Assembly (NCBI GenBank): GCA_023249375.1
Contig: JAHFCT010000022.1
Coordinates: 1-54,202, forward strand
Source of the DNA: Gemmatimonadota bacterium
GTDB lineage: Bacteria > Gemmatimonadota > Gemmatimonadetes > Gemmatimonadales > Gemmatimonadaceae
Length of the DNA stretch: 54,202 nt
Reading direction: 5' to 3'
Shown: piece after piece, positions 8,056 through 37,060 of the stretch
How positions within the stretch are numbered: the first letter of the stretch is position 1
Layout of the letters: each line of letters begins with the position of its first letter
Program-made: the position numbers and the translations under genes
The notes under the pieces: model-generated
Seen by the model: the letters and a program-made list of their open reading frames with translations, nothing else
The model's database searches: none
Told to the model about the DNA's origin: nothing

Positions 8056-9654
8056 CTACGGCAGCGCCCCCTTCAACACATACCCCGTCTTCCTCGGCAG
8101 CTTCGCATCACGCTGCGCGGTGAGCCAGACGAAGCTTGCCACCACCGCCGCGTTGTGCTTCATGTCGTCCGCCTGGATGCGCTCGTACACGTCCTCATTG
8201 GAGTGGTGCGTGCGCGTGCCGTAGTCGAGCGGATCCTGGATAAACTGCCACCCCGGAAGCCCGATGCCATCAAACGCGAGATGGTCGGTGCCGCCGGTGT
8301 TCGAGAAGGTGATGGTCTGCGCCCCGTTGGCCCAGAAGGGCTGCAGCCAGGCATCGAAGATCCCCTTCACACCGGCATTCCCCTGCAGATAGACACCGCG
8401 GATCTTGCCCGTGCCGTTATCGACGTTGAAGTACCCTGCGAACTTGTCGTAGTCGGCCTTGGTGAAGACGGTGTCGCCCTTGCGTTCGCCGAGGTGCGCC
8501 TTCACGAACTCGCGCGACCCGAGAAGACCTTCCTCCTCGCCCGTCCACAGGCCAATGCGGATGGTGCGGCGCGGCTTCAGGCCAAGCGTCTGGATGATGC
8601 GCATGGCTTCGAGCATGACGGCCGAGCCCGCGGCATTGTCGGTGGCCCCGGTGCCGGCGTGCCACGAATCGAAGTGCGCGCCGAGCATCACGATTTCATC
8701 CCTGAGCGCCGGATCGGTGCCGGGAATCTCGGCGACGATGTTGTACGACAGCGTATCGGGCGTGATGGTGTTCTGCATCGTCAGTTCGAGCGGCACCGTG
8801 AGGCCCTTGTCGAGCATGCGCGCGATGCGGCCGTAGGCTTCGCCGGAGACATGCACGGCCGGCATCGGCGGCGGGTTCTTGACGCGCGGCGCGCCGTTGT
8901 CGGTGAAGACCGTGCCCATGTCCCCGCGCGCGGCCATCAGGATGCCCGACGCGCCTTCCTTGACGAGGAACTTGAGGAAGTTCGTGTCGCTGGGCAGGCG
9001 GCCGAGGGCGGCACGCGCAAACTGTGCGCGCTGCGCCGGTGTGAGGTTGGCGAGGTTGGGCGCACCGCCGCCGAATCCGCCGCCGCCCGGCGCCGGCATC
9101 GGCGCCACCGCCATCTTTGCCAGCTCTTCATCCGTGAGTCGATGCGCATCGGCATCGAAATGCGGCTTGATGTCGGGCACGGGCGCGAGCATCACGAACT
9201 TGCCCTTCAGTTTCCCCGCATACTTGGTGGTATCGCCGATCGAGTCGAGCTTCATCATCAGCGCGTCGCCCTTGGCGACGCCTTTCAGCGGCGCCGGCGA
9301 CCAGGCGCGCGGCGCGGCCGCGACCGGAAACGGGTTGTTGCCGGTGACCTGCAGCGCAAAGCGATCATTGCGCCAGCCCTTGTAGAAGGACCAGCCCTCG
9401 AGGTGCGCGTTCTGCACACCCCAACCGGTCATCGCCTTCATCGTCCACTCGGCGGCGGCGTGTTCGTTCGGTGAGCCCGTGAGCCGCGGGCCGTAGACGT
9501 CGGTCAGCCAGCTCATGGTCTCCATCACCTGACTGCGGTTGAGCGCCTCGTCCTTGATCTTCGTGACGGTGGCGAGATCGACCTTCTCCTGCGCGAACGC
9601 GGGCGCGGCTACGAGAAGAACCGCGGCGATCGCGCGACGTGCAAGCCTGCTCAT
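8056..9654 (-). CDS. Exported M28-family zinc aminopeptidase
   Basis: 532 residues with a signal peptide (AIAAVLLVAAPAFAQ). A protease-associated (PA) domain insertion precedes the M28 core. Zinc ligands are visible in LGAHFDSWHAGTGATDN (His, Asp), GEEEGLLGS (Glu-Glu), FNVDNGTG (Asp) and a late THHSNEDVYERI histidine. Such enzymes release N-terminal amino acids in the periplasm or outside the cell. ATG 9654 follows CCAGGAG at 8 nt. Upstream codons in frame lack export features. It lies 58 nt after the S45 acylase gene and probably forms a catabolic pair with it. Confidence 0.88.
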   Translation of the reverse strand: MSRLARRAIAAVLLVAAPAFAQEKVDLATVTKIKDEALNRSQVMETMSWLTDVYGPRLTGSPNEHAAAEWTMKAMTGWGVQNAHLEGWSFYKGWRNDRFALQVTGNNPFPVAAAPRAWSPAPLKGVAKGDALMMKLDSIGDTTKYAGKLKGKFVMLAPVPDIKPHFDADAHRLTDEELAKMAVAPMPAPGGGGFGGGAPNLANLTPAQRAQFARAALGRLPSDTNFLKFLVKEGASGILMAARGDMGTVFTDNGAPRVKNPPPMPAVHVSGEAYGRIARMLDKGLTVPLELTMQNTITPDTLSYNIVAEIPGTDPALRDEIVMLGAHFDSWHAGTGATDNAAGSAVMLEAMRIIQTLGLKPRRTIRIGLWTGEEEGLLGSREFVKAHLGERKGDTVFTKADYDKFAGYFNVDNGTGKIRGVYLQGNAGVKGIFDAWLQPFWANGAQTITFSNTGGTDHLAFDGIGLPGWQFIQDPLDYGTRTHHSNEDVYERIQADDMKHNAAVVASFVWLTAQRDAKLPRKTGYVLKGALP

Positions 9655-25518: not shown

Positions 25519-25962
25519 CTAGCCCTTGATGACCCACACCTTGATCTCGGGCTTCACGTCGGCGTGCAGGCGAATGCCGACCTTGTAGACGCCAAGCGCC
25601 TTGATTGGCTCGCCGAGATCGATCTGCCGCTTCTCGATCTTGATGCCCTGCGCCTCGAGCTGCGCGGCGATGTCGGCCGTCGTCACCGACCCAAACAGCT
25701 TGCCCTCTTCGCCCACGCGCGCGGCAAAGGTGAGCGAGATCGGCTCGATCTTGGCCGCAAACTCCTCAGCCGCCGAGCGGCGCGCGTTCTCCGCTGCCTC
25801 CAGGCTGGCCTTCTCCTGGGCGATGCGCTTCTTGTTGCCCGGCGTGGCCTCGTACGCGATGCCGCGCGGGAGCAGGAAGTTGCGCGCGTAGCCCGCCGAC
25901 ACCTTCACGATGTCGCCCGGATGCCCGAGCTTTTCCACCGCTTCTCGCAGAATGACTTCCAT
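25519..25962 (-). CDS. rplI: 50S ribosomal protein L9
   Basis: 147 residues from ATG 25962 (MEVILREAVEKLGHPGDIVKV). The N-terminal RNA-binding domain carries GYARNFLLPRGIAYEAT. A connecting helix rich in Ala/Glu leads to the C-terminal domain ending VGIRLHADVKPEIKVWVIKG. It is full length. It is last in the rpsF-rpsR-DUF2232-rplI operon, a widely conserved order. An in-frame TTG four codons upstream is less likely. Confidence 0.95.
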   Translation of the reverse strand: MEVILREAVEKLGHPGDIVKVSAGYARNFLLPRGIAYEATPGNKKRIAQEKASLEAAENARRSAAEEFAAKIEPISLTFAARVGEEGKLFGSVTTADIAAQLEAQGIKIEKRQIDLGEPIKALGVYKVGIRLHADVKPEIKVWVIKG

Positions 25963-25977
25963 CGGAAACCCCAACGT

Positions 25978-27006
25978 TCAGGTTGATGGGCGTGCTCGGC
26001 GACGCCAATCCAGCCACGTGTCGCCCAAGCCCAGCCCCACGAAGATCACGCCAGCCGTGCCGGCAAACAGCACCGACAGGCTGACCAGAACGACCATCAT
26101 TACCCGCCCCGGCGCCAGGAAGAACAGCGTGACGCCTGCCCCGCGAAGGCCATACAGCGCCCCGAAGAAGAGCAGCAGGTTGAACCCAGCGCCCCGCAGG
26201 GGAGCAAGGCCCGGCACCACCAGCAGCACCAATCCGCTCACCAGTCCCCAAATGAACTGGTCGTTGAACCGGAACTCCCGAAGGCGTGCGAGCGGCGCGC
26301 CGATACGGGCGCGTCCCACGCGGTGATACAGCGCCCAGGCGAGCCCGAGCGCGGCCAACGTTTCCAGCGCGAGCAGGGCGGGGAAGACCGCGGGTGATTG
26401 TTCGGCGGTGCGCCGCACCATCCCTCGCTGCTCCTCCAGCGTCTTCTCAAACCAGGCCGCCGATTCGGCGTTGGTGGCCCGGAAGTCCTGCCAGTCCTTC
26501 GTCACCAGCCTCGCCTGCCAATCCGCGTCGAATGCATCGGCGCGGCGCAGCGCTTCGCTGGCGAACACTTGCTTCACGCGGGCCGGACCTCCCGGCACCG
26601 CAAACGACGTCATGCCGCCCACGAGAAAAGCCATGCCGAGCGTGGCCAGTGCGCGGGGAAGAAACGGACGATCGGGCCAGATGAGGGCCCACGCCGCAAA
26701 TGCCACCGCCACCAGCACCCCCCAGCCGCGCGCGAGCAGCGCGTAATCGCTTCTCGCCGGTCCTGCCACGATGACCCAGGCGGCGAACGCCACCCACAGC
26801 ACCGCGAGAAAGAGCCGTCCACCGGCCTTCCACCCCGCGAGCGCGCACGCCGCGAGCGCGGGGACCAGCACCAGCGCGGTTTCCGCTACGGGCAGGACCA
26901 CCGAGAATGGTGGCATCGCCGGAAGCAGCAGGAGCAGCGCCAGTCCGCCGACGACACCCCGCCAGCCGCGTTCCCGCGGTGCGGGCTCGACGACGGGAGC
27001 AGTCAC
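25978..27006 (-). CDS. DUF2232 (YybS-like) membrane protein
   Basis: 342 residues, strongly hydrophobic, with about eight membrane segments (GLALLLLLPAMPPFSVVLPV at the start, VSLSVLFAGTAGVIFVGLGL near the end). A soluble central stretch (about 155-200, VKQVFASEALRRADAFDADWQ) carries conserved charged and aromatic residues. YybS/DUF2232 proteins commonly sit between rpsR and rplI, as here, and their function is unknown. GTG 27006 begins immediately before the rpsR TAG, so the genes are head to tail with no spacer. Confidence 0.75.
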   Translation of the reverse strand: MTAPVVEPAPRERGWRGVVGGLALLLLLPAMPPFSVVLPVAETALVLVPALAACALAGWKAGGRLFLAVLWVAFAAWVIVAGPARSDYALLARGWGVLVAVAFAAWALIWPDRPFLPRALATLGMAFLVGGMTSFAVPGGPARVKQVFASEALRRADAFDADWQARLVTKDWQDFRATNAESAAWFEKTLEEQRGMVRRTAEQSPAVFPALLALETLAALGLAWALYHRVGRARIGAPLARLREFRFNDQFIWGLVSGLVLLVVPGLAPLRGAGFNLLLFFGALYGLRGAGVTLFFLAPGRVMMVVLVSLSVLFAGTAGVIFVGLGLGDTWLDWRRRARPST

Positions 27007-27228
27007 CTACGGAGTCTGGCCGCGCGTGTACGGCAGCAGCGCCAGATAGCGCGCCTTCTTGATGGCGCTCGCCAGCTGACGCTGGTGACGCGCGCACGTG
27101 CCACTGAGCCGGCTCGGCAGGATCTTGCCGTTGTCCGTGACGAAGCGCGACAAAAAGCGCTCGTCCTTGAAGTCAACAAAGCGGATGCGGGCTTCGTCCA
27201 TCGGGCAGGTCTTCTTCTGGCGGCGCAT
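27007..27228 (-). CDS. rpsR: 30S ribosomal protein S18
   Basis: 73 residues ([20 protein letters not shown]). The conserved [20 protein letters not shown] and C-terminal [16 protein letters not shown] are present. It binds with S6 to the platform of the 30S subunit. Its ATG overlaps the rpsF TAA by one base (TAATG), indicating coupled translation of the S6/S18 pair. Confidence 0.96.
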
Positions 27229-27590
27229 TATTCGTCGTCCTCGTCGTCGTCGTCACGGGCCCGCTTGGCGGCGAGCTGTTCCTCGGTCATTGGCGGCGCG
27301 CCGAGCTCATGCTCATGGATCGAGATGAGGTAGCGTACGACGCCGTCGTCGAGCTTGAGCGAGCGCTCGAACTCGGGCAGCACCTTGCCGTCCGCCTTGA
27401 AGCGCGCGACGAGATAGTAGCCTGTCTCACGCTTGCCGATCTTGTAGGCGAGCTGGCGACGGCCCCAGTGGTTGAGCGCAATTTCGCCGTCGGCGCTGAG
27501 GAGCGCGTGGTGCTTGGCGATCTTGTCGTTGATGGCGGCGTCTTCGAGCGTCGAGTCGAAGACGTACACCGCCTCGTATTCACGAGTCAC
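27228..27590 (-). CDS. rpsF: 30S ribosomal protein S6
   Basis: 120 residues from GTG 27590 ([20 protein letters not shown]). [21 protein letters not shown] is the family core, and the C-terminus is a highly acidic tail (DDDDEDDE). AAAGGAGG lies 10 nt before the GTG. A TTG at 27599 is only one base from the SD and is rejected as the start. S6 pairs with S18, encoded next. The leader carries a strong hairpin and a good promoter. Confidence 0.95.
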
Positions 27591-27619
27591 GGATGGCAAT
27601 CCTCCTTTGGTCGTTCGCG

Positions 27620-27646
27620 CCCCCCGCGGGTTGCCGACGCGGGGGG
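27620..27646 (-). promoter_or_regulatory. Leader hairpin upstream of rpsF
   Basis: A perfect 9-bp stem (CCCCCCGCG at 27620-27628 with CGCGGGGGG at 27638-27646) and a 9-nt loop. It lies in the transcribed leader, just before the rpsF SD. S6:S18 autoregulatory RNA structures occur at this place in several phyla. Whether this hairpin belongs to that class is not established. Confidence 0.45.
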
Positions 27647-27688
27647 AGGCAAGGCGGCCTGAATTGGCCGCGTTGTGTTGAGCCTTGA

Positions 27689-27717
27689 ATAATAGTCGGG
27701 GCCTTCCGAGGGGTCAA
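27689..27717 (-). promoter_or_regulatory. Sigma70-type promoter of the rpsF operon
   Basis: On the minus strand, TTGACC (27712-27717), a 17-bp spacer and TATTAT (27689-27694). It is the best promoter match in the window. It gives a leader of about 90 nt containing the hairpin. Confidence 0.8.
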
Positions 27718-27845
27718 CCGGCGGTTCGGCCCCGCAGCTGGCGCTCCCGCGTCATGTCTTCGGGCTGCTCACTGCGGCGTCCGATTCTGTTCGGCGCGCG
27801 CACCGCGCTAATCCGGACGCCCGCGCCTTTTCCCGCGCAGGAATG

Positions 27846-27852
27846 TATATAT
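27846..27852 (+). promoter_or_regulatory. Possible -10 element of the lasso cluster
   Basis: TATATAT is the only AT-rich heptamer in the 200 bp before the first precursor gene, about 67 bp from its ATG. No convincing -35 lies at the right distance, so an activator or another sigma factor may be involved. The rest of 27718-27919 shows nothing I can name. Confidence 0.4.
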
Positions 27853-27919
27853 GTTCACTCAGGTCGGCCGCGCGCAGGCATCAGCGGTCGATCGTGATCA
27901 TTTGCCCCGGGGGTAGAGC

Positions 27920-28090
27920 ATGCCAGCCGAAGAGCTGAAGGCAGAGGCAATGGGAGCCCCCAAGCGACCAGGACGGATGGCGTGGACTGCACCAGTTCTT
28001 CGCACGCTCGGCGACCTTTCTGCCCTCACGCAGAAGGTGGACACCATCGGCAAGAATGACGGCGGCTCCGGCACCATGAAGCGCACCTGA
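27920..28090 (+). CDS. Lasso peptide precursor 1
   Basis: 56 residues (MPAEELKAEAMGAPKRPGRM at the start, GGSGTMKRT at the end). Residues 22-36 (WTAPVLRTLGDLSAL) plus Thr37 match the lasso leader pattern Y/W-x-x-P-x-L-x-x-x-G-x(4-5)-T. Taking that Thr as position -2, the core is 18 residues: KVDTIGKNDGGSGTMKRT. It has Lys1 and an Asp at position 9, suited to a nine-residue macrolactam ring. It sits 7 nt before the PqqD-type gene. GGGGGTAGAG precedes the ATG. The second precursor at 30 kb aligns without gaps over the last 35 residues (19 identical). Confidence 0.85.
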   Translation: MPAEELKAEAMGAPKRPGRMAWTAPVLRTLGDLSALTQKVDTIGKNDGGSGTMKRT

Positions 28091-28097
28091 GCACAGC

Positions 28098-28400
28098 ATG
28101 ACCGTCGCCCTTGCAATCGACGACACCGTGGCTGCCACCCCCGATCAGGTTTCCGCCGACCTCTCGGGCGAGGTGGTGATCCTCGGTATGCGAGACGGCA
28201 TCTACTACGGCGTCGAAAGCGTGGGTGCTCGCATTTGGGCGCTCATTCAGTCGCCAGTACGGGTGTCCACCATTGTGGAGACGCTCGTCGCCGAGTTTGA
28301 CGTCGAACCGACGCCGTGTGCGGCAGACGTCTTGGCCTTTGTCGACTCGCTCGTAGCCAAGGGACTCGTCGCGCGTGTCGACACCGAAGCGGCTGCGTAG
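28098..28400 (+). CDS. Lasso peptide PqqD-type leader-recognition protein (B1)
   Basis: 100 residues with the PqqD/RRE fold pattern: strands (ADLSGEVVILGMRDGIYYGV), then a winged-helix (ESVGARIWALIQSPVRVSTI, VAEFDVEPTPCAADVLAFVD). It ends SLVAKGLVARV. In lasso systems the stand-alone RRE protein B1 binds the YxxP leader and presents the precursor to protease B2 and cyclase C. It starts 7 nt after precursor 1 and overlaps B2 by 26 nt, so the three are almost certainly co-translated. Confidence 0.9.
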   Translation: MTVALAIDDTVAATPDQVSADLSGEVVILGMRDGIYYGVESVGARIWALIQSPVRVSTIVETLVAEFDVEPTPCAADVLAFVDSLVAKGLVARVDTEAAA

Positions 28401-28830
28401 CTTTGCTGACCTGCCGCGCCAGGAGCGCGGCCTGGCGCTGCGGGCGCTCTGGACGCTCGCGCTCGTTCGGGTAGGGCTGCGCCTGCTGTCGTTTCGCCGG
28501 CTTCGCGCGCGCATTGAACGCGCCGGCGGCGCCTGCGGCTCGGTGGACGAGCCCTTCGCCCGCGCCGTGCGCCGCGCGGTGGATCGGGCTGCCCGTTCGA
28601 TTCCCGGCAGCGCCTGCTTGGCTCAAGCGTTGGCGGCGGAGGTGTTGCTGCGGCGCGGCGGACGCGAGGTCCGTACCTCCATCGGAGTGGCACGCGACGG
28701 CCGACTCCTTGCGGCGCACGCGTGGGTGGAGAGTGCAGGGGTGCTGGTGACCGGAGACGCCGCCGATCTCGGGGAGTACAAGCGGTTGCTGGTCTTTGGC
28801 GAGCCGAGCGTCGCTGCGTCCGCGCCGTGA
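28375..28830 (+). CDS. Lasso peptide leader protease (B2, transglutaminase-like)
   Basis: 151 residues. The cysteine-protease triad of the lasso B2 family is visible: Cys81 in IPGSACLAQALAAEVLLRR, His115 in LLAAHAWVESAGVLV, and a likely Asp128 (GD after the His strand). TSIGVARDGR is the strand typical of the Transglut_core3 fold. It removes the leader after the conserved Thr-x, freeing the core N-terminus for ring closure. GTG 28375 lies inside the B1 gene. Its TGA overlaps the methyltransferase GTG (GTGA). Confidence 0.9.
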   Translation: MSTPKRLRSFADLPRQERGLALRALWTLALVRVGLRLLSFRRLRARIERAGGACGSVDEPFARAVRRAVDRAARSIPGSACLAQALAAEVLLRRGGREVRTSIGVARDGRLLAAHAWVESAGVLVTGDAADLGEYKRLLVFGEPSVAASAP

Positions 28831-30017
28831 CCTACGTACTGAACGACTACGTCGCGATGGTTTCGGACGAGCGCCGCACGGGCGCGTACGTGCGCGCCCT
28901 GCAGTGCTTGGTGCGTCCTGATTCTGTCGTGCTCGATCTCGGCACAGGCTTCGGGTTCTTCGCGGTGCTCGCGGCACGGCTTGGCGCCAAGCACGTCTAC
29001 GCCGTCGATCCCAACGATGCCATCTCCCTCGGCCCTGAACTGGCGCGAGACAATGGCGTGAGCGACCGCGTGACATTTTTTCACGCGGACTCGCGCGACA
29101 TTTCCCTGCCGGAGCGCGCCAACGTGCTCGTGGAGGACGTACGCGGCGTGCTGCCGTATCACGCCGACCGGGTGCGACTACTGTGCGACGCGCGTCATCG
29201 CTTGCTCACTCCGAATGCGCGGGTCGTCGCCGAGCGCGATCATCTGTTTGCGGCGCCGGTGCGGGCGCGGCCCGATTGGTCCAGCGACCGAAGGGTGCTG
29301 CAAGACGGCGCCTTCGGGGTCAGTCTCGAGGCCATTGCGCGCCGGACCGCCGATGCGTGGCGCCGAGGGAGGATCGCGCCGGATCAAGTGCTCTTCGGTG
29401 CCGAATCGATAGGATCCATTGAACTGGCGACGGTGCAGTCCCCCAACTTCGAGGGCATCGCTGCCTGGACGGTGCCGGCCGCCGCACGCATCGACGGCTT
29501 CACCGTGTGGTTCGATGCTGAACTCGCTGGCGGCGAGCGATTCTCGACCGCGCCGGGACCGGCGCAAGCCGTGCACGGAAGCTCCTATTTTCCTCTACGA
29601 GAACCGATTGAGGTGCTGCCGGGGGACGGTCTACGGTTTCGATTCGTCGGGATTCAAGGCGGCTCGGACTACACGTGGATCTGGGAATGCGGCTGTCGGC
29701 GTGGAGCCGACGCCGCGTGGACGCCGGGTCCGCGACAGTCCTCCATCGGCGCAACGCTGCTCGCTTCGCGGCGGCTCGCCTCACAGTCGCAAGAGCACGT
29801 GCCGACACTAGGAGAAGGGGGCTGTCGCCTGCAGCGCGCCACCGCGCTTATCGACGGCATTCGTGAGTCCCGAGAGATTGCTGCGGCGCTCGCCGCGACG
29901 GCGGCGTGCGGCTTTCGCGACAAGGATCAGGCATTCGCGTGGCTGGTTCGGGTGTTGCGAAACCTCGAGGTGGGTCACGAACCCCAAACCGAGGTGGAGC
30001 CACGAGATATTGCCTAA
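28827..30017 (+). CDS. PRMT-like SAM methyltransferase with possible RRE-like C-terminus
   Basis: 396 residues. SAM motif I is VVLDLGTGFGFFAVLAARLG (34-53) followed by HVYAVDPND, as in protein arginine methyltransferases. NVLVEDVRGVLPY resembles the PRMT substrate-Glu loop, though with Glu-Asp instead of two spaced Glu. A beta-rich middle (about 200-300) matches the PRMT barrel region in size. The last ~70 residues (LQRATALIDGIRESREIAAA, then AFAWLVRVLRNL) look like a PqqD-type winged helix, which would bind a leader. Being inside the lasso operon, it probably modifies the peptide. The invariant Arg17 of both cores is the obvious candidate, by inference. It could instead act on another residue. 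Confidence 0.72.
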   Translation: MTYVLNDYVAMVSDERRTGAYVRALQCLVRPDSVVLDLGTGFGFFAVLAARLGAKHVYAVDPNDAISLGPELARDNGVSDRVTFFHADSRDISLPERANVLVEDVRGVLPYHADRVRLLCDARHRLLTPNARVVAERDHLFAAPVRARPDWSSDRRVLQDGAFGVSLEAIARRTADAWRRGRIAPDQVLFGAESIGSIELATVQSPNFEGIAAWTVPAAARIDGFTVWFDAELAGGERFSTAPGPAQAVHGSSYFPLREPIEVLPGDGLRFRFVGIQGGSDYTWIWECGCRRGADAAWTPGPRQSSIGATLLASRRLASQSQEHVPTLGEGGCRLQRATALIDGIRESREIAAALAATAACGFRDKDQAFAWLVRVLRNLEVGHEPQTEVEPRDIA

Positions 30018-30038: not shown

Positions 30039-30072
30039 ACTTACAGTCCAGCTGGTCCTGAGAGGAGTGACG

Positions 30073-30270
30073 TTGGAAACGAAAGAGCGGGTCCACCATT
30101 CAGAAGCGCAGTATCCCCGTCCGTGCCGTGTCGATCAGTGCAGTGTACCCGTCCGCGCGCCGTACGAAGTGCCCTTGCTCAGGACCTTCGGATCCGTTGC
30201 CGCGCTGACCGCCAAAGTCGATTGGCAAGGGCGAACCGACGGCGGCTCCTTCTTGATGTCGCGAACCTAG
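30073..30270 (+). CDS. Lasso peptide precursor 2
   Basis: 65 residues from TTG 30073, with AGGAG five nt upstream; a GTG at 30067 would add two residues but sits on the SD. The leader motif is YEVPLLRTFGSVAALT. With that Thr at -2, the core is KVDWQGRTDGGSFLMSRT: Lys1, Asp9, and the same C-terminal Arg17-Thr18 as precursor 1. Shared core positions are K1, V2, D3, G6, D9, G10, G11, S12, M15, R17 and T18. Its N-terminal extension carries two Cys (PCRVDQC) absent from precursor 1. It lies 13 nt upstream of the cyclase gene. Confidence 0.85.
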   Translation: METKERVHHSEAQYPRPCRVDQCSVPVRAPYEVPLLRTFGSVAALTAKVDWQGRTDGGSFLMSRT

Positions 30271-30283
30271 CGACCGGAGAGCG

Positions 30284-32065
30284 ATGCTCAGCTTTGGCGC
30301 CCTAATCGCACTCGACGGCGCGCCCATAGCACCCGAGGCCTCAGCGCGCCTCCGTCAGTCGCTCGCCGCGACGCCGGGGCGCGCTCATTCGTTTGAAACG
30401 TCGACCGTCGCCTGCGTTCACGTGACACACGCGGCGCCGCTGGACAACGACCGCGATCTGCCCCTCATCGCGACACAAGGCCTCGTGTTGATGGGAGCGC
30501 TGCGCCTCGATGATCGCGAGCGTCTGCGCCGGGAACTGAAGGACGGTGCAGCGGGCGAACTTGCGAGCGCATCGGATGCCTGGCTGGCGGCCATGGCGTA
30601 TCTCCGCTGGGGTGAGCGATTCGCCGAGCACCTCATGGGTGACTTCGCGTTCTGCGTGTGGGATTCCGCGGCAGGCCGAGTGGTCTGCGTGCGCGACCAT
30701 CACGGCAACCGCCCGCTGTATTGGGGCCGCGACGGCGAGCGATTCGTCGTCAGCACGGCGCTTGAGGGCGTGCGTTCACAGGTCGCGCGGGCGGGAGAAC
30801 TGCGCGAGGACTCGATCGCGAGCTTCCTCGAAACTGGCTGGGTTCGGGATCCGTCGGCGACTGTTTGGCGCGGCGTGCATCGGGTGCCGCGCGCCACGAC
30901 GCTTTCGGTTTCGCGCGGCGCGGCACCGAACTTTCGAACGCACTGGGAGTTTCCGGTGCCAGCGCCGCTACGCTACCGCGATGATGCCGATTATGTGGCG
31001 CACTTCGCCGAGGTGCTTGGGGCTGCGGTGCGCGATCGACTGCGCGCACCGTCGGCGGTGGTGTTTCTCAGCGGCGGGATGGACAGTACCACGCTGGCGT
31101 GCACCGCCCGCGAGACGGCGCCGGACGTGACGCTGTGGGCGCTCACCACCGGGACACCGGCGCTCGCGGCGAGCGACGACGATCATCTGTCGCGTGCCGT
31201 GGCGCAGCACTTGGGGATTGCCCACGACCAACTCGCGTTCGACGAGCTCCGCTCGCTTGCCTGGCTCGATGACGTGACGCCGTATCCGGCGGAGCCGATG
31301 GATGAGCCCGACCTCGGGGCCGCGCGGGCGAGCGCGGTCGCCGCGGCACGGCGCGCGCCGATTGCGATCCTCGGGGAGGACGGCGACACGCTGCTGCAAG
31401 CGCCGACGTTGCTGGCGCAGCTGAGGTCGCAGCCGTTCGGCGAAGTCCTCGGCGCGTGGTGGCGGTATCGGCGCCAGGCCGGGCGCTGGCCATGGGTGGG
31501 GTTGGAGTGGCGCAGACGCGCGCGGGGCGCGCTCGGCCGCGGCGTGCCCGATCGCACGCCGTGGCTGCGCGACAGCGCCCGACGCCTCGCGGGCGCCGAG
31601 CCGCCGCGCGCGGCGCATCCCGTGCGTCCGCGGTCGGTGGCGTTGCTGACGTCTGGACTGTGGGACGCCGTGTACGAGCACCAGTCGCCGTCGGTGTCCG
31701 GCGCCGAGCTGCTGGTGACGCTGCCGCTGGTCGACCCTCGCGTGATCGAGTTTGTGTTTGCGATTCCACCCGTGCCGTGGGGACAGAACAAGCAGATCAT
31801 GCGTGCGGCGATGCGCCACCGGCTGCCCGCCGAGGTGCTGGCGCGCCCCAAGACGGCGTTCGGCGGATACATCGAAGCACGCGTGGCGCAGTGGCGCGCG
31901 AGCGGCGGCGCCGCTGCCCGATTGTCGGCGCGCGTGGCGCCGTGGGTGGATCGCGCGCGGGTAGAGGAGGTGTTTCAGCGCGGTCATCCGTACGCGGTGC
32001 TCGACGCATGGCGTGTGCTCGTGCTCGATCACTGGCTCGCCCGCCAGGCGCAGGGCAATGGCTGA
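30284..32065 (+). CDS. Lasso cyclase (C, asparagine-synthetase-like)
   Basis: 593 residues. The N-terminal half is a class-II glutaminase-like domain (GDFAFCVWDSAAGRVVCVRD, GNRPLYW), but it begins MLSFGAL with no Cys2. It therefore cannot hydrolyse glutamine, as expected of a lasso cyclase. The C-terminal synthetase domain has the PP-loop VVFLSGGMDSTTLA (SGGMDST at 263-269) and ILGEDGD. It adenylates the Asp9 side chain and closes the ring with the core N-terminus while the tail is threaded. CGGAGAG precedes the ATG. Confidence 0.9.
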   Translation: MLSFGALIALDGAPIAPEASARLRQSLAATPGRAHSFETSTVACVHVTHAAPLDNDRDLPLIATQGLVLMGALRLDDRERLRRELKDGAAGELASASDAWLAAMAYLRWGERFAEHLMGDFAFCVWDSAAGRVVCVRDHHGNRPLYWGRDGERFVVSTALEGVRSQVARAGELREDSIASFLETGWVRDPSATVWRGVHRVPRATTLSVSRGAAPNFRTHWEFPVPAPLRYRDDADYVAHFAEVLGAAVRDRLRAPSAVVFLSGGMDSTTLACTARETAPDVTLWALTTGTPALAASDDDHLSRAVAQHLGIAHDQLAFDELRSLAWLDDVTPYPAEPMDEPDLGAARASAVAAARRAPIAILGEDGDTLLQAPTLLAQLRSQPFGEVLGAWWRYRRQAGRWPWVGLEWRRRARGALGRGVPDRTPWLRDSARRLAGAEPPRAAHPVRPRSVALLTSGLWDAVYEHQSPSVSGAELLVTLPLVDPRVIEFVFAIPPVPWGQNKQIMRAAMRHRLPAEVLARPKTAFGGYIEARVAQWRASGGAAARLSARVAPWVDRARVEEVFQRGHPYAVLDAWRVLVLDHWLARQAQGNG

Positions 32066-33017
32066 CTACACACTCTACGGACTCGTCGTGCGCTCGGACC
32101 GACCGCTCGGCGGGCTCGACGCGGCGCCGGACGGAGCCGCCGTTGACGTGCAGATCACGCTGGGCGAAGGCGCGCCGCCCAACGCGCACTCCGAAGATCT
32201 CGTGCCGTACCACTCCGGCGGCGCGCACGCCGAGAGTGAAGCGGACGTGCGCCGCGATACCGCCGGGAATTTCTGGTTCAGGTACTCCGACGACACCTGC
32301 TTTGTGCTCGACCCTGCGGGCACGAGCATTCGTGCCTGGTGGGCGGAGCACTCCTCGCTTGAGGACACGGCCACGTACCTGCTGGGGCCGGTACTTGGAT
32401 TTGCCCTTCGCCGCCGCGGGGTGTTGGCGTTACACGCGAGCGCCATCATTCTCGGGGGCCGCGCCGTCGCGTTTCTTGGCCGCAGCGGCTCCGGCAAGTC
32501 CACCACCGCCGCGGCGTTCGCCGCCGAGGGCGTGCCGGTGCTGAGCGACGACGTGGTTGCGGTGCGGACGATCGGCGGCTTGGCATCGGCGTATCCATCG
32601 TATCGGCTGCTGCGCCTGTGGGACGCATCGGAGCAGATGTTATTTGGCACGGTGGGTCAACTGCCCTTGATGACGCCAACGTGGGACAAGCGTGCGCTGC
32701 CCCTCGGCGATGCGCATCCGTTCCACGCGGCGCCGGCACCGCTTGGCGACTTGTTCATCATCGCGCCGCGCGCCGACGATGCGCACGCACCATACGTCGA
32801 GGTGATGCGGCCGCGCGTCGCGTTCATGGAACTCGTCGCGAACACCTACGCGAACTATCTGCTGGATGACGCGATGCGCGCTGAGGAGATGGGCGCGCTC
32901 GACGCCCTGCTGCGCGGGCGCCGCGTGCGGCGCCTCGTGCCGCACGCCGATCCGAGCCGACTTGAGGCACTCGTGCGATGCGTGCGCGACGCCGTGGACG
33001 AGTCCGACGGTCGCTGA
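32058..33017 (+). CDS. HPr-kinase-like lasso peptide kinase
   Basis: 319 residues. The Walker A is LGRSGSGKSTTAAAF (GRSGSGKST at 141-149), preceded by a His in LALHASAIIL and followed by VPVLSDDVVAV. This arrangement matches HprK C-terminal domains. HprK homologues in lasso clusters phosphorylate the C-terminal residue's hydroxyl (serine in the described cases). Both cores here end in Thr18, making that the predicted target. It overlaps the cyclase gene by 8 nt and the next gene follows after 3 nt. Confidence 0.82.
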   Translation: MADYTLYGLVVRSDRPLGGLDAAPDGAAVDVQITLGEGAPPNAHSEDLVPYHSGGAHAESEADVRRDTAGNFWFRYSDDTCFVLDPAGTSIRAWWAEHSSLEDTATYLLGPVLGFALRRRGVLALHASAIILGGRAVAFLGRSGSGKSTTAAAFAAEGVPVLSDDVVAVRTIGGLASAYPSYRLLRLWDASEQMLFGTVGQLPLMTPTWDKRALPLGDAHPFHAAPAPLGDLFIIAPRADDAHAPYVEVMRPRVAFMELVANTYANYLLDDAMRAEEMGALDALLRGRRVRRLVPHADPSRLEALVRCVRDAVDESDGR

Positions 33018-33020
33018 GGC

Positions 33021-34217
33021 GTGACGACGGAGCGGGCCGCGCGCCATCTTTCGCGCATGGGTGAAACGGTGCGCCCCGAGAATGCCTTTGTGCTGGCCGC
33101 GCTGCGCCGAGACGCGCACGCGGCAGACGCGAGGCGCGCGGCGGCCAACGCCGTCACGGACTGGGCGGCGGTGGCGGCGCTGGCGGTCGCGCACGACGTC
33201 TCGTGGCACGTGCTGCGTGCCCTGCCAGGCGACGCCTCTCTCGACGCCGCTCGCGAGCCGCTCACCGCGGCGGTGAATCACGCGGCGATCAGCGGACTTG
33301 CGGCGGCGCGGCAGCTCACGGAATTGCACGGCCTGCTGCAGCGCGCGGGCGTGCGCGCGGTGGCGTACAAGGGGCCCGCGCTCGCCGTTGACGTGCACGC
33401 TGATCTGGCGGCGCGCGTGTTCACGGACTTGGATATGCTCATTGCGGAGCATGACCGCGCGCGAGCGGACGAGGCGATGCGAGCCGCCGGCTACGTGCCG
33501 CCGTCGGGCTTCACGCGGCGCGAGGCCCGCGTGTACTCCCGATGGGAGGGAGTGGCCCACTTCGAGCGTGGCGCCGATTGGCCGGTGGAGCTTCACTGGC
33601 GCTGCCAGGCGCCGCGCTATGGCGGACCACAGGATCCGGCGGCCATCGTGGCGCGCGCCGTGCCTCGCGCGCTGGGGGGCGGCACGGTGTTGGTGCCCGT
33701 CGCGGAAGATCTGGGCGTGTTGCTCGCGCTGCACGGCGCAAAGCACGCGTGGACCAGCATGATGTGGCTCGCCGACTTCGCGGCCGCCGTGACGCGTCCC
33801 GCGTTCCACTGGACCGTGGCGACCGAGCGCGCGTCGGCGTGGGGAGTGCAGCGCGCATGGCATTACGCCGTGCGGGTTGCGTCGACCCTCGTCTGCTTGC
33901 CCGTGCCCGAGCGCCTTCTGGCTGCAGCGCGCGGTGACGCGCGGATTACGCCGCTGGTGGACGCGGCCTGCGCGCGACTGTCGGGTGCGAGCGTGATCCC
34001 GGATGTCGGCGCGGAGTCAACCCCGCGTTACGACCTGCAGTGGCTGGACGGAACGCTGCCGCGGCTGCGGTATCTCGCGCTGGCGACGGTGCTGCCTACC
34101 CCGGCGGACCGCATGGCGGCGCGTCTGCCCGATGTGCTGCTTCCGCTGGCGTATCCGCTGCGCGCCGTGCGGGTCGCCGCACGCGCGATGGCGCACGCGG
34201 CGACGAGGCACGAATGA
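33021..34217 (+). CDS. Nucleotidyltransferase-family protein of the lasso cluster
   Basis: 398 residues of the NTP_transf_5 type. AVAYKGPALAVDVHADLA (KGPAL at 117-121) is followed by the metal-binding acidic pair in VFTDLDMLIAEHD (D136, D138). Then come VELHWR and a helical C-terminus with LLALHGAKHAWTSMMWLADF. Family members recur in kinase-containing lasso clusters, but to my knowledge the reaction is undefined. It could transfer a nucleotide or extend the phosphate added by the kinase, which is inference. GTG 33021 is the start. Its stop overlaps the ABC exporter ATG (ATGA). Confidence 0.75.
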   Translation: MTTERAARHLSRMGETVRPENAFVLAALRRDAHAADARRAAANAVTDWAAVAALAVAHDVSWHVLRALPGDASLDAAREPLTAAVNHAAISGLAAARQLTELHGLLQRAGVRAVAYKGPALAVDVHADLAARVFTDLDMLIAEHDRARADEAMRAAGYVPPSGFTRREARVYSRWEGVAHFERGADWPVELHWRCQAPRYGGPQDPAAIVARAVPRALGGGTVLVPVAEDLGVLLALHGAKHAWTSMMWLADFAAAVTRPAFHWTVATERASAWGVQRAWHYAVRVASTLVCLPVPERLLAAARGDARITPLVDAACARLSGASVIPDVGAESTPRYDLQWLDGTLPRLRYLALATVLPTPADRMAARLPDVLLPLAYPLRAVRVAARAMAHAATRHE

Positions 34218-35908
34218 GCGACCTGCGCGCCTTCGCGCGCTTCCTTTGGCGTGACCACCGTCGCGCGATGCTCGTGGTGGCAGTTGCCTCGGCGGCGCTG
34301 TCGCTCACCGAGGGCGTCGGCCTTTTGATGCTGGTCCCCATGCTGCAACAGGTGGGTGTCTCGACGTCCGGCGATGCCGCCGACCACGTGTCACGCGCGC
34401 TCGAGTCGGTGCTGCGCGCCGCGGGTCTCGAGCCCACGCTGTTGAGCGTGTTGGTGCTTGTCGTTGCGCTCGTGACCTTGCGTGCGACGCTGCAGTGGAT
34501 ACTCGCGGTCTGGGAGGCACGTCTTGAGGCGGGTGTGATTGGCCGACTGCGCCAGCGTCTGTTTGCCGCAGTGGTTGCCATGCCGTGGGCGCGATTCACC
34601 GGCGAGCGGCCGGCAGCGCTGCAGCACGCCATTGGTCCGCAAGTTGATGATGTGCACAGCGCGCTGCTGCTGTTGCTGCAAGGCGCTTCGCTGACGGCGG
34701 CGGTGGCGGCGGCCGCTGCCGTCGCCCTCGTGGTGTCGCCCGCGCTGACAGTCATCGTCGGAGTGAGCGGGGCTTTGCTCTTCTGGCTGGCTCGCCAGTT
34801 GCGGGCTCCCGGCCGCGCGGAGGGCGACGCGTTGCTCGCGGCGTCCATAGGACTCTTCGCTCGCATCAGCGAACTGCTCGGCGGTCTCAAGATGGTGCAC
34901 GCGCACGGCGCCGAGGAGCGAGCGGTGGCCGCCGTGGCCGCGGACACGGCGATGTGGACCTCGCTGACTGAACGTACCGCCCTGCGACGCGGGCTCGTGA
35001 GCTTGGCGCTCGCCGTGGCGTCCGCCTTCGTGCTTGGCGTGCTGGTCTGGCTGGGCGTGTCGCTGGCGCACTTGTCGCCCGCTACGCTGCTGCTGCTTCT
35101 GCTGCTGTACGCGCGACTGGTGCCGCGCGTCTCCGAGCTACAAGCAACTGCAAGTTCGCTGGGGCAGACACTCGCCTCGTATCGCTCAGTGGCGGCCCTG
35201 CTAACGCGATGCGCGGGGGAGCGAGACAATGCGGATGGGCGCTTGGCGGCGCTCCCTCGGCTGCCCGCGCGCGCGCCTGACCTTGCGGTGCGAGGGATCA
35301 CCGTTCGCTACCCGGCGACGGAGGGGCGGGCGCTCGTGGATTTCTCCGCGCGCTTCGACGCGGGCACCATCACCGTCGTGACGGGCCCGTCAGGCGCCGG
35401 CAAGACCACGCTGGGCGACGTGCTGCTTGGCCTGCTCGCACCCGAAGTGGGCGACGTCCTTGTCGATGGCGCGCCGCTGGCGGCCCTGCCGCGCGCGCAG
35501 TGGTGCGCGCGGGTGGGCTATCTGGCGCAGGAGCCGATGCTCTTTCACGGCACCATCCGCGAGAACCTGCTGTTCGCGCACCCCGACGCCAGCCACGACG
35601 AGCTGCGCGCGGCGCTGCGCGATGCCGCATGCGACTTTGTCCATCGTCTGCCGCACGGACTCGACGCCCCGATCGGCGAGCGCGGCGTGATGCTCAGTGG
35701 CGGTGAGCGTCAGCGGCTGGCCCTCGCGCGCGCCCTGCTGCGACAACCCGACCTGCTCGTGCTCGACGAGGCGACGAGCGCGCTCGACGCCGAGACCGAG
35801 ACGCGCATTCTCGACACGCTCCACGCGCTCAAAGGGCGCTGCACGGTGGTGTTCTGCACGCACCGCGAGGCGCCAACGGCGATCGCCGATCAGTTGCTGA
35901 GGCTGTAG
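34214..35908 (+). CDS. Lasso peptide ABC exporter (D)
   Basis: 564 residues. An N-terminal six-helix exporter membrane domain (about 15-310) is fused to an ABC ATPase. Walker A is TGPSGAGKTT (390-399), the signature MLSGGERQRLALARAL (493-508) and Walker B DLLVLDEATSALD. The half-transporter would dimerise in the inner membrane and export the mature peptide, giving self-immunity as well. It is the last gene of the cluster. Only 51 nt separate it from convergent ychF, and no terminator is obvious there. Confidence 0.9.
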   Translation: MSDLRAFARFLWRDHRRAMLVVAVASAALSLTEGVGLLMLVPMLQQVGVSTSGDAADHVSRALESVLRAAGLEPTLLSVLVLVVALVTLRATLQWILAVWEARLEAGVIGRLRQRLFAAVVAMPWARFTGERPAALQHAIGPQVDDVHSALLLLLQGASLTAAVAAAAAVALVVSPALTVIVGVSGALLFWLARQLRAPGRAEGDALLAASIGLFARISELLGGLKMVHAHGAEERAVAAVAADTAMWTSLTERTALRRGLVSLALAVASAFVLGVLVWLGVSLAHLSPATLLLLLLLYARLVPRVSELQATASSLGQTLASYRSVAALLTRCAGERDNADGRLAALPRLPARAPDLAVRGITVRYPATEGRALVDFSARFDAGTITVVTGPSGAGKTTLGDVLLGLLAPEVGDVLVDGAPLAALPRAQWCARVGYLAQEPMLFHGTIRENLLFAHPDASHDELRAALRDAACDFVHRLPHGLDAPIGERGVMLSGGERQRLALARALLRQPDLLVLDEATSALDAETETRILDTLHALKGRCTVVFCTHREAPTAIADQLLRL

Positions 35909-35959
35909 CCGCCTGACACCGCGCGCTGCTGCCGTTCTGCGACGCGCGCTGGGTCGGAC

Positions 35960-37060
35960 TTACACGTTGAATCGGAAGAGCAGGACGTCGCCGTCGTTGA
36001 CGACGTATTCCTTGCCTTCACTGCGCACGACGCCCGCGTCCTTGGCTCCCTTGAGTCCACCGTACGAAATGAAATCGTCGTAGCTCACCGTCTCGGCGCG
36101 AATGAACCCGCGCTCGAAGTCGCTGTGAATGACGCCGGCGGCCTGGGGGGCGGTGTCTCCCCGGTGGATCGTCCAGGCGCGCACTTCTTTCTCGCCGGCC
36201 GTGAAATAGGTCTGCAGACCGAGCAGGTGGTAGCCGCCGCGAATCAGCCGGTCGAGCCCAGCCGACTCGATGCCGAGGTGGTGCAGGAACTCGGCGCGTT
36301 CCTCCGGCGGAAGTTCGGCGAGTTCCATTTCGATCTTCGCGGAGAACGTCACGACCTCGGCGGGTTCGTGATCATTGGCGATCGCTGCACGCAGCGCCGT
36401 GATGTGCGGCCCTTCAGCGCCGCCCAGTTCGGCGTCCGTGACATTGGCCGCGTAGAGAATGGGCTTGAGCGTCAGCAGCTGCAGTGGCTGCATGAAGGCG
36501 CGCTCCTCGGGTGTGAGCGCCACGTGCCAGAGCGCGCGTCCTTCCGAGAGCGGCCCGTACGCCTTCTCGAGCGCCGCCACCTCGGTCGCCGCGGCCTTGT
36601 CGCCGGTCTTGGCCGAGCGGCGCGCGCGATCAAGGCGTTTCTCCACGGACGTGAGGTCGGCGAGTGCCAGCTCGAACTCGATCGTCTCGCGGTCGCGCAC
36701 CGGATCGACGGCGCCATCGACGTGCGTCACGTCGTGATCGTCGAAGCAGCGCACGACGTGCACGATGGCGTCCGTTTCGCGGATGTTCGAGAGAAACGCG
36801 TTGCCGCGTCCCTCGCCCTTGGACGCACCGCGCACCAGCCCCGCGATGTCGACGAACTGCACGGCGGCCGGCAGCGTGCGCTGCGGCTTGACGACGTCGG
36901 CGAGCCGGTCGAGCCGCGGGTCCGGGACGTTCACCACGCCGATGTTCGGGTCGATGGTGCAGAACGGATAGTTGGCCGCCTCGGCCTTGGCCGAGGTGAT
37001 GGCATTGAAGAGCGAGGACTTGCCGACGTTCGGCAGTCCGACGATTCCGAGAGAGAGCAT
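35960..37060 (-). CDS. ychF: Ribosome-binding ATPase YchF
   Basis: 366 residues of an Obg-family protein. G1 is [15 protein letters not shown] (8-22), G3 [18 protein letters not shown], with a coiled-coil insert around [19 protein letters not shown]. The G4-like ANVTDAEL replaces the NKxD of GTPases, consistent with the ATP preference of YchF. The C-terminal TGS domain contains [26 protein letters not shown]. It is full length. It is convergent with the lasso cluster. Confidence 0.96.

What the first reader, a model, noticed from the sequence alone, without database searches (positions are those of the whole stretch)
27920..28090. A 56-codon lasso precursor easily missed by gene callers
The frame MPAEELKAEAMG to GTMKRT is short but sits exactly where a lasso A gene belongs, 7 nt before B1. 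It carries W-T-A-P-V-L-R-T-L-G and a conserved Thr at the expected -2 position. The putative core is 18 residues with Asp at position 9.
Basis: partly seen in the sequence, partly recalled or inferred. Interest (0 to 1): 0.85.

Follow-up and report, generated by a model that had tools for sequence, protein, structure and literature searches.

The report
Short lasso-peptide precursor gene, confirmed
The 56-codon frame is a real gene for a knotted "lasso" peptide in an uncultured Gemmatimonas-like bacterium, conserved in nearly all close relatives; the kind is known, but its predicted first residue (lysine) and one attached tailoring enzyme are unusual.

Summary
ATG 27920 to stop 28090 encodes 56 aa, 7 nt before B1. 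The leader has W(-17), P(-14), L(-12), G(-8), T(-2); the core is KVDTIGKNDGGSGTMKRT with Asp9. The motif plus a short core occurs twice in the window (A1, and a second precursor A2 at 30067-30270) against 0.05 expected. A precursor profile matches 10 of 11 genomes of the genus. The nearest relative has A1 in the same place before B1, with codon-position differences of 5/3/17 (14 synonymous, 6 nonsynonymous), so the frame is translated and under selection. The operon is A1-B1-B2-MT-A2-C-K-N-D. Best mechanism: B1/B2 cut after T-Q, C joins Lys1 to Asp9, kinase K and nucleotidyltransferase homologue N modify Thr18, and a PRMT-fold methyltransferase adds another mark. The genes are shown; the chemistry is inferred. 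"Easily missed" is plausible (curated profiles score A1 below cut-off, codon signal weak), but no gene caller was run. This is a known kind with unusual details: Lys1, a PRMT-like enzyme without the arginine-binding acidic pair, and ring Asp at 10-11 in relatives.

The parts
27920..28090 (+). A1: lasso precursor gene, 56 aa (the finding)
   Evidence: ORF; family profile E 2.9e-19 in the window's own genome; orthologue in G009 with 14 synonymous and 6 nonsynonymous codon changes
27920..28033 (+). A1 leader, 38 aa, with W(-17), P(-14), L(-12), G(-8), T(-2)
   Evidence: sequence; invariant P, L, G and T in 16 aligned precursors; spacing matches the Tyr(-17)/Pro(-14)/Leu(-12)/Thr(-2) rule of PMC10368454
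28034..28087 (+). A1 core, 18 aa: KVDTIGKNDGGSGTMKRT; predicted macrolactam Lys1 amine to Asp9; Thr18 C-terminal
   Evidence: Thr(-2) rule; the Asp is invariant in alignment A2; cleavage site inferred
28098..28400 (+). B1: RRE / PqqD-like leader-binding protein
   Evidence: PF05402 E 1.3e-17; NF033536 lasso_PqqD_Bac E 4.2e-21, bits just under its cut-off
28375..28830 (+). B2: lasso leader peptidase (transglutaminase-like), Cys ... AHAWVE ... D kept
   Evidence: NF033537 80.6 bits against a cut-off of 33; PF13471 E 4.7e-22; triad pattern
28827..30017 (+). MT: PRMT-fold SAM methyltransferase, double-E and THW loops not kept
   Evidence: profile matches PRMT6 at E 5.6e-35; AlphaFold model matches PRMT2, Hmt1 and PRMT1 in Foldseek; beside a precursor or B2 in 22 of 26 genomes
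30067..30270 (+). A2: second lasso precursor, 67 aa (GTG; a TTG at 30073 is an alternative start); core 30214-30267 KVDWQGRTDGGSFLMSRT
   Evidence: family profile E 6.8e-19; NF033528 18.1 bits, below its cut-off of 33
30284..32065 (+). C: lasso cyclase (asparagine-synthetase homologue)
   Evidence: PF00733 E 9.3e-28; NF033535 E 3.6e-53, below its cut-off
32058..33017 (+). K: HPr-kinase-related peptide kinase (longest frame starts at 32013) with the H...GKS...DD motif
   Evidence: TIGR04352 HprK_rel_A E 1.1e-9, below its cut-off; LHAS...GSGKS...SDD motif
33021..34217 (+). N: nucleotidyltransferase-like protein (PF14907)
   Evidence: PF14907 E 9.7e-43; PsmN of pseudomycoidin has the same kind of annotation (PMC9266682)
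34214..35908 (+). D: ABC exporter
   Evidence: PF00005 E 1.2e-27 and PF00664 E 1.2e-8

Best explanation
The frame is lassoA1, one of two precursor genes of a lasso-peptide operon (A1-B1-B2-MT-A2-C-K-N-D) in an uncultured member of the Gemmatimonadaceae. B1 would bind the W-x2-P-x-L stretch of the leader and B2 would cut after Thr(-2)-Gln(-1). The ATP-dependent cyclase C would then join the alpha-amine of Lys1 to the side chain of Asp9, giving a 9-residue ring threaded by the 9-residue tail GGSGTMKRT. The kinase K would phosphorylate the C-terminal Thr18, with N possibly adding a sugar or nucleotide there, as PsmK and PsmN do in pseudomycoidin. MT adds a methyl group at an unknown site, and D exports the product. 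Shown: the gene, its conservation, its translation-type evolution and its enzyme neighbourhood. Inferred: the cleavage site, ring, thread, modifications and export. The biological activity is unknown.
For: Exact motif spacing, and a hit density far above simulation. Adjacent B1 and B2 (B2 clears its curated cut-off), plus C and ABC genes. A precursor profile matches 10 of 11 same-genus genomes, often with two or three copies per locus. The A1 orthologue before B1 in G009 differs mostly at third codon positions (5/3/17; 14 synonymous against 6 nonsynonymous). The whole locus is syntenic across the genus. 44 distinct precursors of the family keep the same gapless leader spacing, and each has just one acidic residue between core positions 6 and 12. 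The kinase keeps the H-K-D-D motif that PMC9266682 reports for lasso kinases, and a hydroxyl residue next to a basic one is kept at or near the C-terminus of most of the family.
Against: No peptide or mass data. Lys1 is not among the first residues that the metanodin paper lists as experimentally seen (Gly, Cys, Ser, Ala; it adds Asn). NCBIfam scores both precursors below cut-off, and the kinase and C models are also below their strict cut-offs. Codon usage alone is weak for A1 and negative for A2. G009 keeps no recognisable A2.
Confidence: 0.88

Rival explanations
1. A chance open frame that happens to contain the motif next to B1.
For: Short, weak codon signal, and an 85-codon antisense frame covers it.
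Against: Family profile E 2.9e-19, third-position-biased divergence from the orthologue, and a paralogue in the same operon. The antisense frame scores -8.1 bits.
Confidence: 0.01
2. A1 is a relic or spare copy and A2 is the working precursor.
For: In most relatives the precursors sit before C, as A2 does; the A1 position is unusual.
Against: In the nearest relative only A1 is recognisable and the A2 place holds no intact precursor. A1 shows purifying-type change.
Confidence: 0.05
3. The product is an unthreaded branched-cyclic peptide, or the cut is one or more residues away, so that the ring is not Lys1-Asp9.
For: In relatives the single ring-type Asp lies at 10 or 11 by the same rule (14 of 44 precursors). 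The A1 tail has no aromatic plug residue.
Against: 29 of 44 precursors, and all but one of the 16 in alignment A2, place the Asp exactly at 9.
Confidence: 0.15

Closest known systems
Pseudomycoidin and paeninodin (class II lasso peptides with kinase K and, in pseudomycoidin, nucleotidyltransferase homologue N)
   Same: C-terminal hydroxyl residue as likely phosphorylation site, K with the H-K-D-D motif, N-type gene (PMC9266682); split B1/B2, C and exporter
   Different: C-terminal Thr after a basic residue instead of Ser; Lys1; an added PRMT-fold methyltransferase; two precursors
Bsf cluster of Bradymonas sediminis (A, B1, B2, C, D, K, N; PMC10368454)
   Same: Same gene set apart from MT, YxxPxL leader motif at -17 to -12; bordered on one side by ribosomal proteins
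   Different: Gly1, Asp8 ring, Ile(-2), and phosphorylation shown on Ser3; here Lys1, Asp9, Thr(-2) and no Ser or Thr at position 3
NCBIfam NF033528 lasso_cyano (cyanobacterial lasso precursors)
   Same: Only model that matches A1 and A2; cyanobacterial precursors at loci L075/L076 share V2, D9 and a C-terminal NRT-x
   Different: A1 at 13.3 bits and A2 at 18.1 bits are below the cut-off of 33, so this is no formal member; position 1 is Ala or Ser in those
Metanodin (soil metagenome lasso peptide, Asn1; PMC12670498)
   Same: A gene not annotated by antiSMASH, found by hand from Thr(-2) and the spacing to Asp; non-standard first residue
   Different: Classical ABC cluster of a gammaproteobacterium; Asn1 instead of Lys1

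Membership tests
Lasso peptide (RiPP class) | Precursor with a leader carrying Y/W(-17), P(-14), L(-12), T(-2) | tested here: met
   Exact spacing; P, L, G and T invariant in 16 relatives
Lasso peptide (RiPP class) | Asp/Glu at core position 7-9 | tested here: met
   Asp9 in A1 and A2
Lasso peptide (RiPP class) | B1 (RRE), B2 peptidase and C cyclase in the same operon | tested here: met
Lasso peptide (RiPP class) | Threaded isopeptide ring | not testable with these tools
   needs expression and MS/MS or NMR
Phosphorylated (K/N-type) lasso peptides | HprK-related kinase with H-K-D-D motif | tested here: met
   TIGR04352 hit (E 1.1e-9, below its cut-off) and LHAS...GSGKS...SDD in the window and several relatives
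Phosphorylated (K/N-type) lasso peptides | C-terminal Ser as substrate | tested here: not met
   The C-terminus is Thr18 in A1 and A2; a hydroxyl residue is kept, but not Ser
NF033528 lasso_cyano | Score over the curated cut-off of 33 bits | tested here: not met
   13.3 and 18.1 bits
PRMT (for the methyltransferase gene) | PRMT fold with Rossmann domain plus C-terminal barrel | tested here: met
PRMT (for the methyltransferase gene) | Double-E loop (two Glu that bind arginine) and THW loop | tested here: not met
   Aligned to PRMT6 SEWMGYGLLHE, the family reads [ES]D-[VL]-R-G-x-L-P: first Glu replaced by an invariant Asp, second not kept; THW replaced

The most novel reading that the evidence does not exclude
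Gemmatimonadaceae carry a branch of lasso peptides that bends two rules and uses a new tailoring enzyme. (1) The ring starts with Lys in most cores of this genus, and never with Gly in 44 precursors of the family. (2) In sister genera the ring Asp sits at 10 or 11, beyond the known 7-9. (3) A PRMT-fold methyltransferase has exchanged the arginine-binding acidic pair for a conserved Asp-x-Arg-Gly loop, and so would act on an acidic group such as the C-terminal carboxylate or a phospho-threonine rather than on arginine.
Probability: 0.3. Interest if true: 0.65.

Novelty: new variant of a known kind. Interest (0 to 1): 0.45.

Why it matters
The family gives ready test cases for three open points: how permissive lasso cyclases are at position 1 (Lys, Thr, Ala, Arg), whether rings of 10-11 residues exist, and what a PRMT-fold enzyme does to a lasso peptide. 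In relatives the locus stays in one chromosomal slot beside ribosomal-protein genes, which suggests vertical inheritance and a role worth keeping.

Tried and rejected
A first codon-usage run used a training set that included shadow frames; it was repeated with a clean set. Arginine methylation by MT was considered and not adopted, because the arginine-binding double-E loop is not kept and RT-type tails also occur in clusters without MT (G002, G007). Literature searches for lasso peptides with Gemmatimonadetes, arginine methyltransferase, PRMT or Lys1 gave nothing on point in the held library; that is weak evidence of absence.

Full report
What was claimed and what is there. The frame 27920-28090 (+) is exactly as described: ATG start, 56 codons, stop TGA, and B1 beginning at 28098, 7 nt later. 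The leader holds W(-17), P(-14), L(-12), G(-8) and T(-2), counted from core residue Lys1. The core is KVDTIGKNDGGSGTMKRT, 18 residues with Asp9. The literature gives Tyr(-17), Pro(-14), Leu(-12) and Thr(-2) as recognition residues of lasso precursors (PMC10368454), so the spacing fits exactly, with Trp in place of Tyr.

Is it more than chance. The strict motif with a 14-26 residue tail occurs twice in the 54 kb window; 60 first-order Markov simulations gave a mean of 0.05 and a maximum of 1. The second hit is another precursor, A2, at 30067-30270, with core KVDWQGRTDGGSFLMSRT, directly before the cyclase gene. Codon usage is a weak guide here: A1 scores +5.6 bits in all, B1 +28.4, the 85-codon antisense frame over A1 -8.1, and A2 -7.4. 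Of 44 shadow frames inside known genes, one scores as well as A1 per codon.

Conservation. The same lasso locus was found in relatives by its B2 gene and mapped with the window's proteins. A profile of 16 precursors matches 32 of 179 genomes of the family, including 10 of 11 of the genus. Nine of those ten had members in the profile or are the window itself, so the match is partly by construction; the independent evidence is that each was first found by motif at its own lasso locus. The eleventh genome, G008, has a lasso cluster with a more distant precursor (YQAPVLRVHG...). The nearest relative by this locus, G009, carries the A1 orthologue immediately before B1. Over the 36 codons from the Trp to the stop, differences fall 5/3/17 on codon positions one, two and three, with 14 synonymous and 6 nonsynonymous codon changes. 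That is the signature of a translated, selected frame. G009 has no intact A2. In most other relatives the precursors (one to three) lie between MT or B2 and C, so the A1 position is a local arrangement.

The operon. B1 is a PqqD-like RRE (PF05402 E 1.3e-17; NF033536 E 4.2e-21, slightly under its cut-off). B2 passes its curated cut-off (NF033537, 80.6 bits against 33). C is an asparagine-synthetase-type cyclase. K is HprK-related (TIGR04352, below cut-off) with the H...GKS...DD motif. N is PF14907, and D is an ABC exporter. The rpsF side of the locus is the same in all nine relatives of the genus examined (L031-L039) and the ychF side in six of them; some contigs end before the flank. Two members of a second genus (L044, L045) have both flanks, and one of a third (L049) has the ychF side. 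The cluster therefore looks like an old resident of one chromosomal slot.

The methyltransferase. MT is weakly matched by generic methyltransferase models, but a profile of nine family members matches PRMT6 at E 5.6e-35, and an AlphaFold model (mean pLDDT 81) matches PRMT2, Hmt1 and PRMT1 structures. The arginine-binding double-E loop is not kept: the aligned stretch reads [ES]D-[VL]-R-G-x-L-P in the family, and the THW loop is also gone. At E 1e-20 the profile finds 26 of 179 genomes in the family. In 22 of these the gene lies within about 5 kb of a precursor or a B2 gene; I counted this by hand from the listed coordinates. The enzyme is thus tied to lasso clusters. The loss of the acidic pair and the conserved Arg suggest a target other than arginine, perhaps the C-terminal carboxylate or a phosphorylated Thr; that is inference.

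Mechanism. The best-supported course is: B1 binds the leader, B2 cuts after T(-2)-Q(-1), and C closes the ring from the Lys1 amine to Asp9 with the tail GGSGTMKRT threaded. K phosphorylates Thr18 and N may extend it, by analogy with PadeK, PsmK and PsmN (PMC9266682). MT methylates at an unknown site and D exports. Gene, selection and neighbourhood are shown; all chemistry is inferred.

What is unusual. Lys at position 1 is not in the list of experimentally seen first residues given in the metanodin paper (Gly, Cys, Ser, Ala, and now Asn; PMC12670498). From my own knowledge, a few others such as Trp and Leu are also known, so a large first residue is not excluded. Among 44 distinct precursors collected here by the strict leader pattern, position 1 is K 14, T 11, A 7, R 5, S 3, V 2, N 2, and never G. 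The single acidic residue between positions 6 and 12 is at 9 in 29, 10 in 10, 11 in 4 and 8 in 1. Either rings of 10-11 residues exist in the sister genera or the cut is shifted there.

Verdict. It is a new variant of a known kind: a lasso precursor below the cut-offs of the curated models, in a phosphorylation-type cluster with an added PRMT-fold enzyme.

Noticed in passing
window 30067-30270 (+): Second lasso precursor A2, core KVDWQGRTDGGSFLMSRT, with GTG or TTG start and negative codon score; likely even easier to miss than A1.
   Followed up: yes
window 28827-30017 (+): PRMT-fold methyltransferase in a lasso operon, lacking the double-E and THW loops, with conserved D-[VL]-R-G-x-L-P; linked to lasso precursors or B2 in 22 of 26 genomes of the family.
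   Followed up: partly
L044, L045, L163, L171, L179, L031, L037, L170, L178: Related precursors whose only ring-type Asp is at core position 10 or 11 by the Thr(-2) rule, beyond the known 7-9 range; some also have two Cys (L037, L178).
   Followed up: partly
window 25519-28090 and 35908-37060; L031-L039, L044, L045: The lasso locus sits in one conserved chromosomal slot beside rpsF-rpsR-DUF2232-rplI and, where the contig allows it to be seen, mostly ychF, across the genus and in a second genus.
   Followed up: partly
L075, L076 (Spirulina and relatives): Cyanobacterial precursors share the core pattern (V2, D9, C-terminal NRT-x) with the Gemmatimonadaceae family.
   Followed up: no
L038 (G009), 8614-8805: The place of A2 between MT and C holds no intact precursor in the nearest relative; it may be a decayed copy.
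   Followed up: partly
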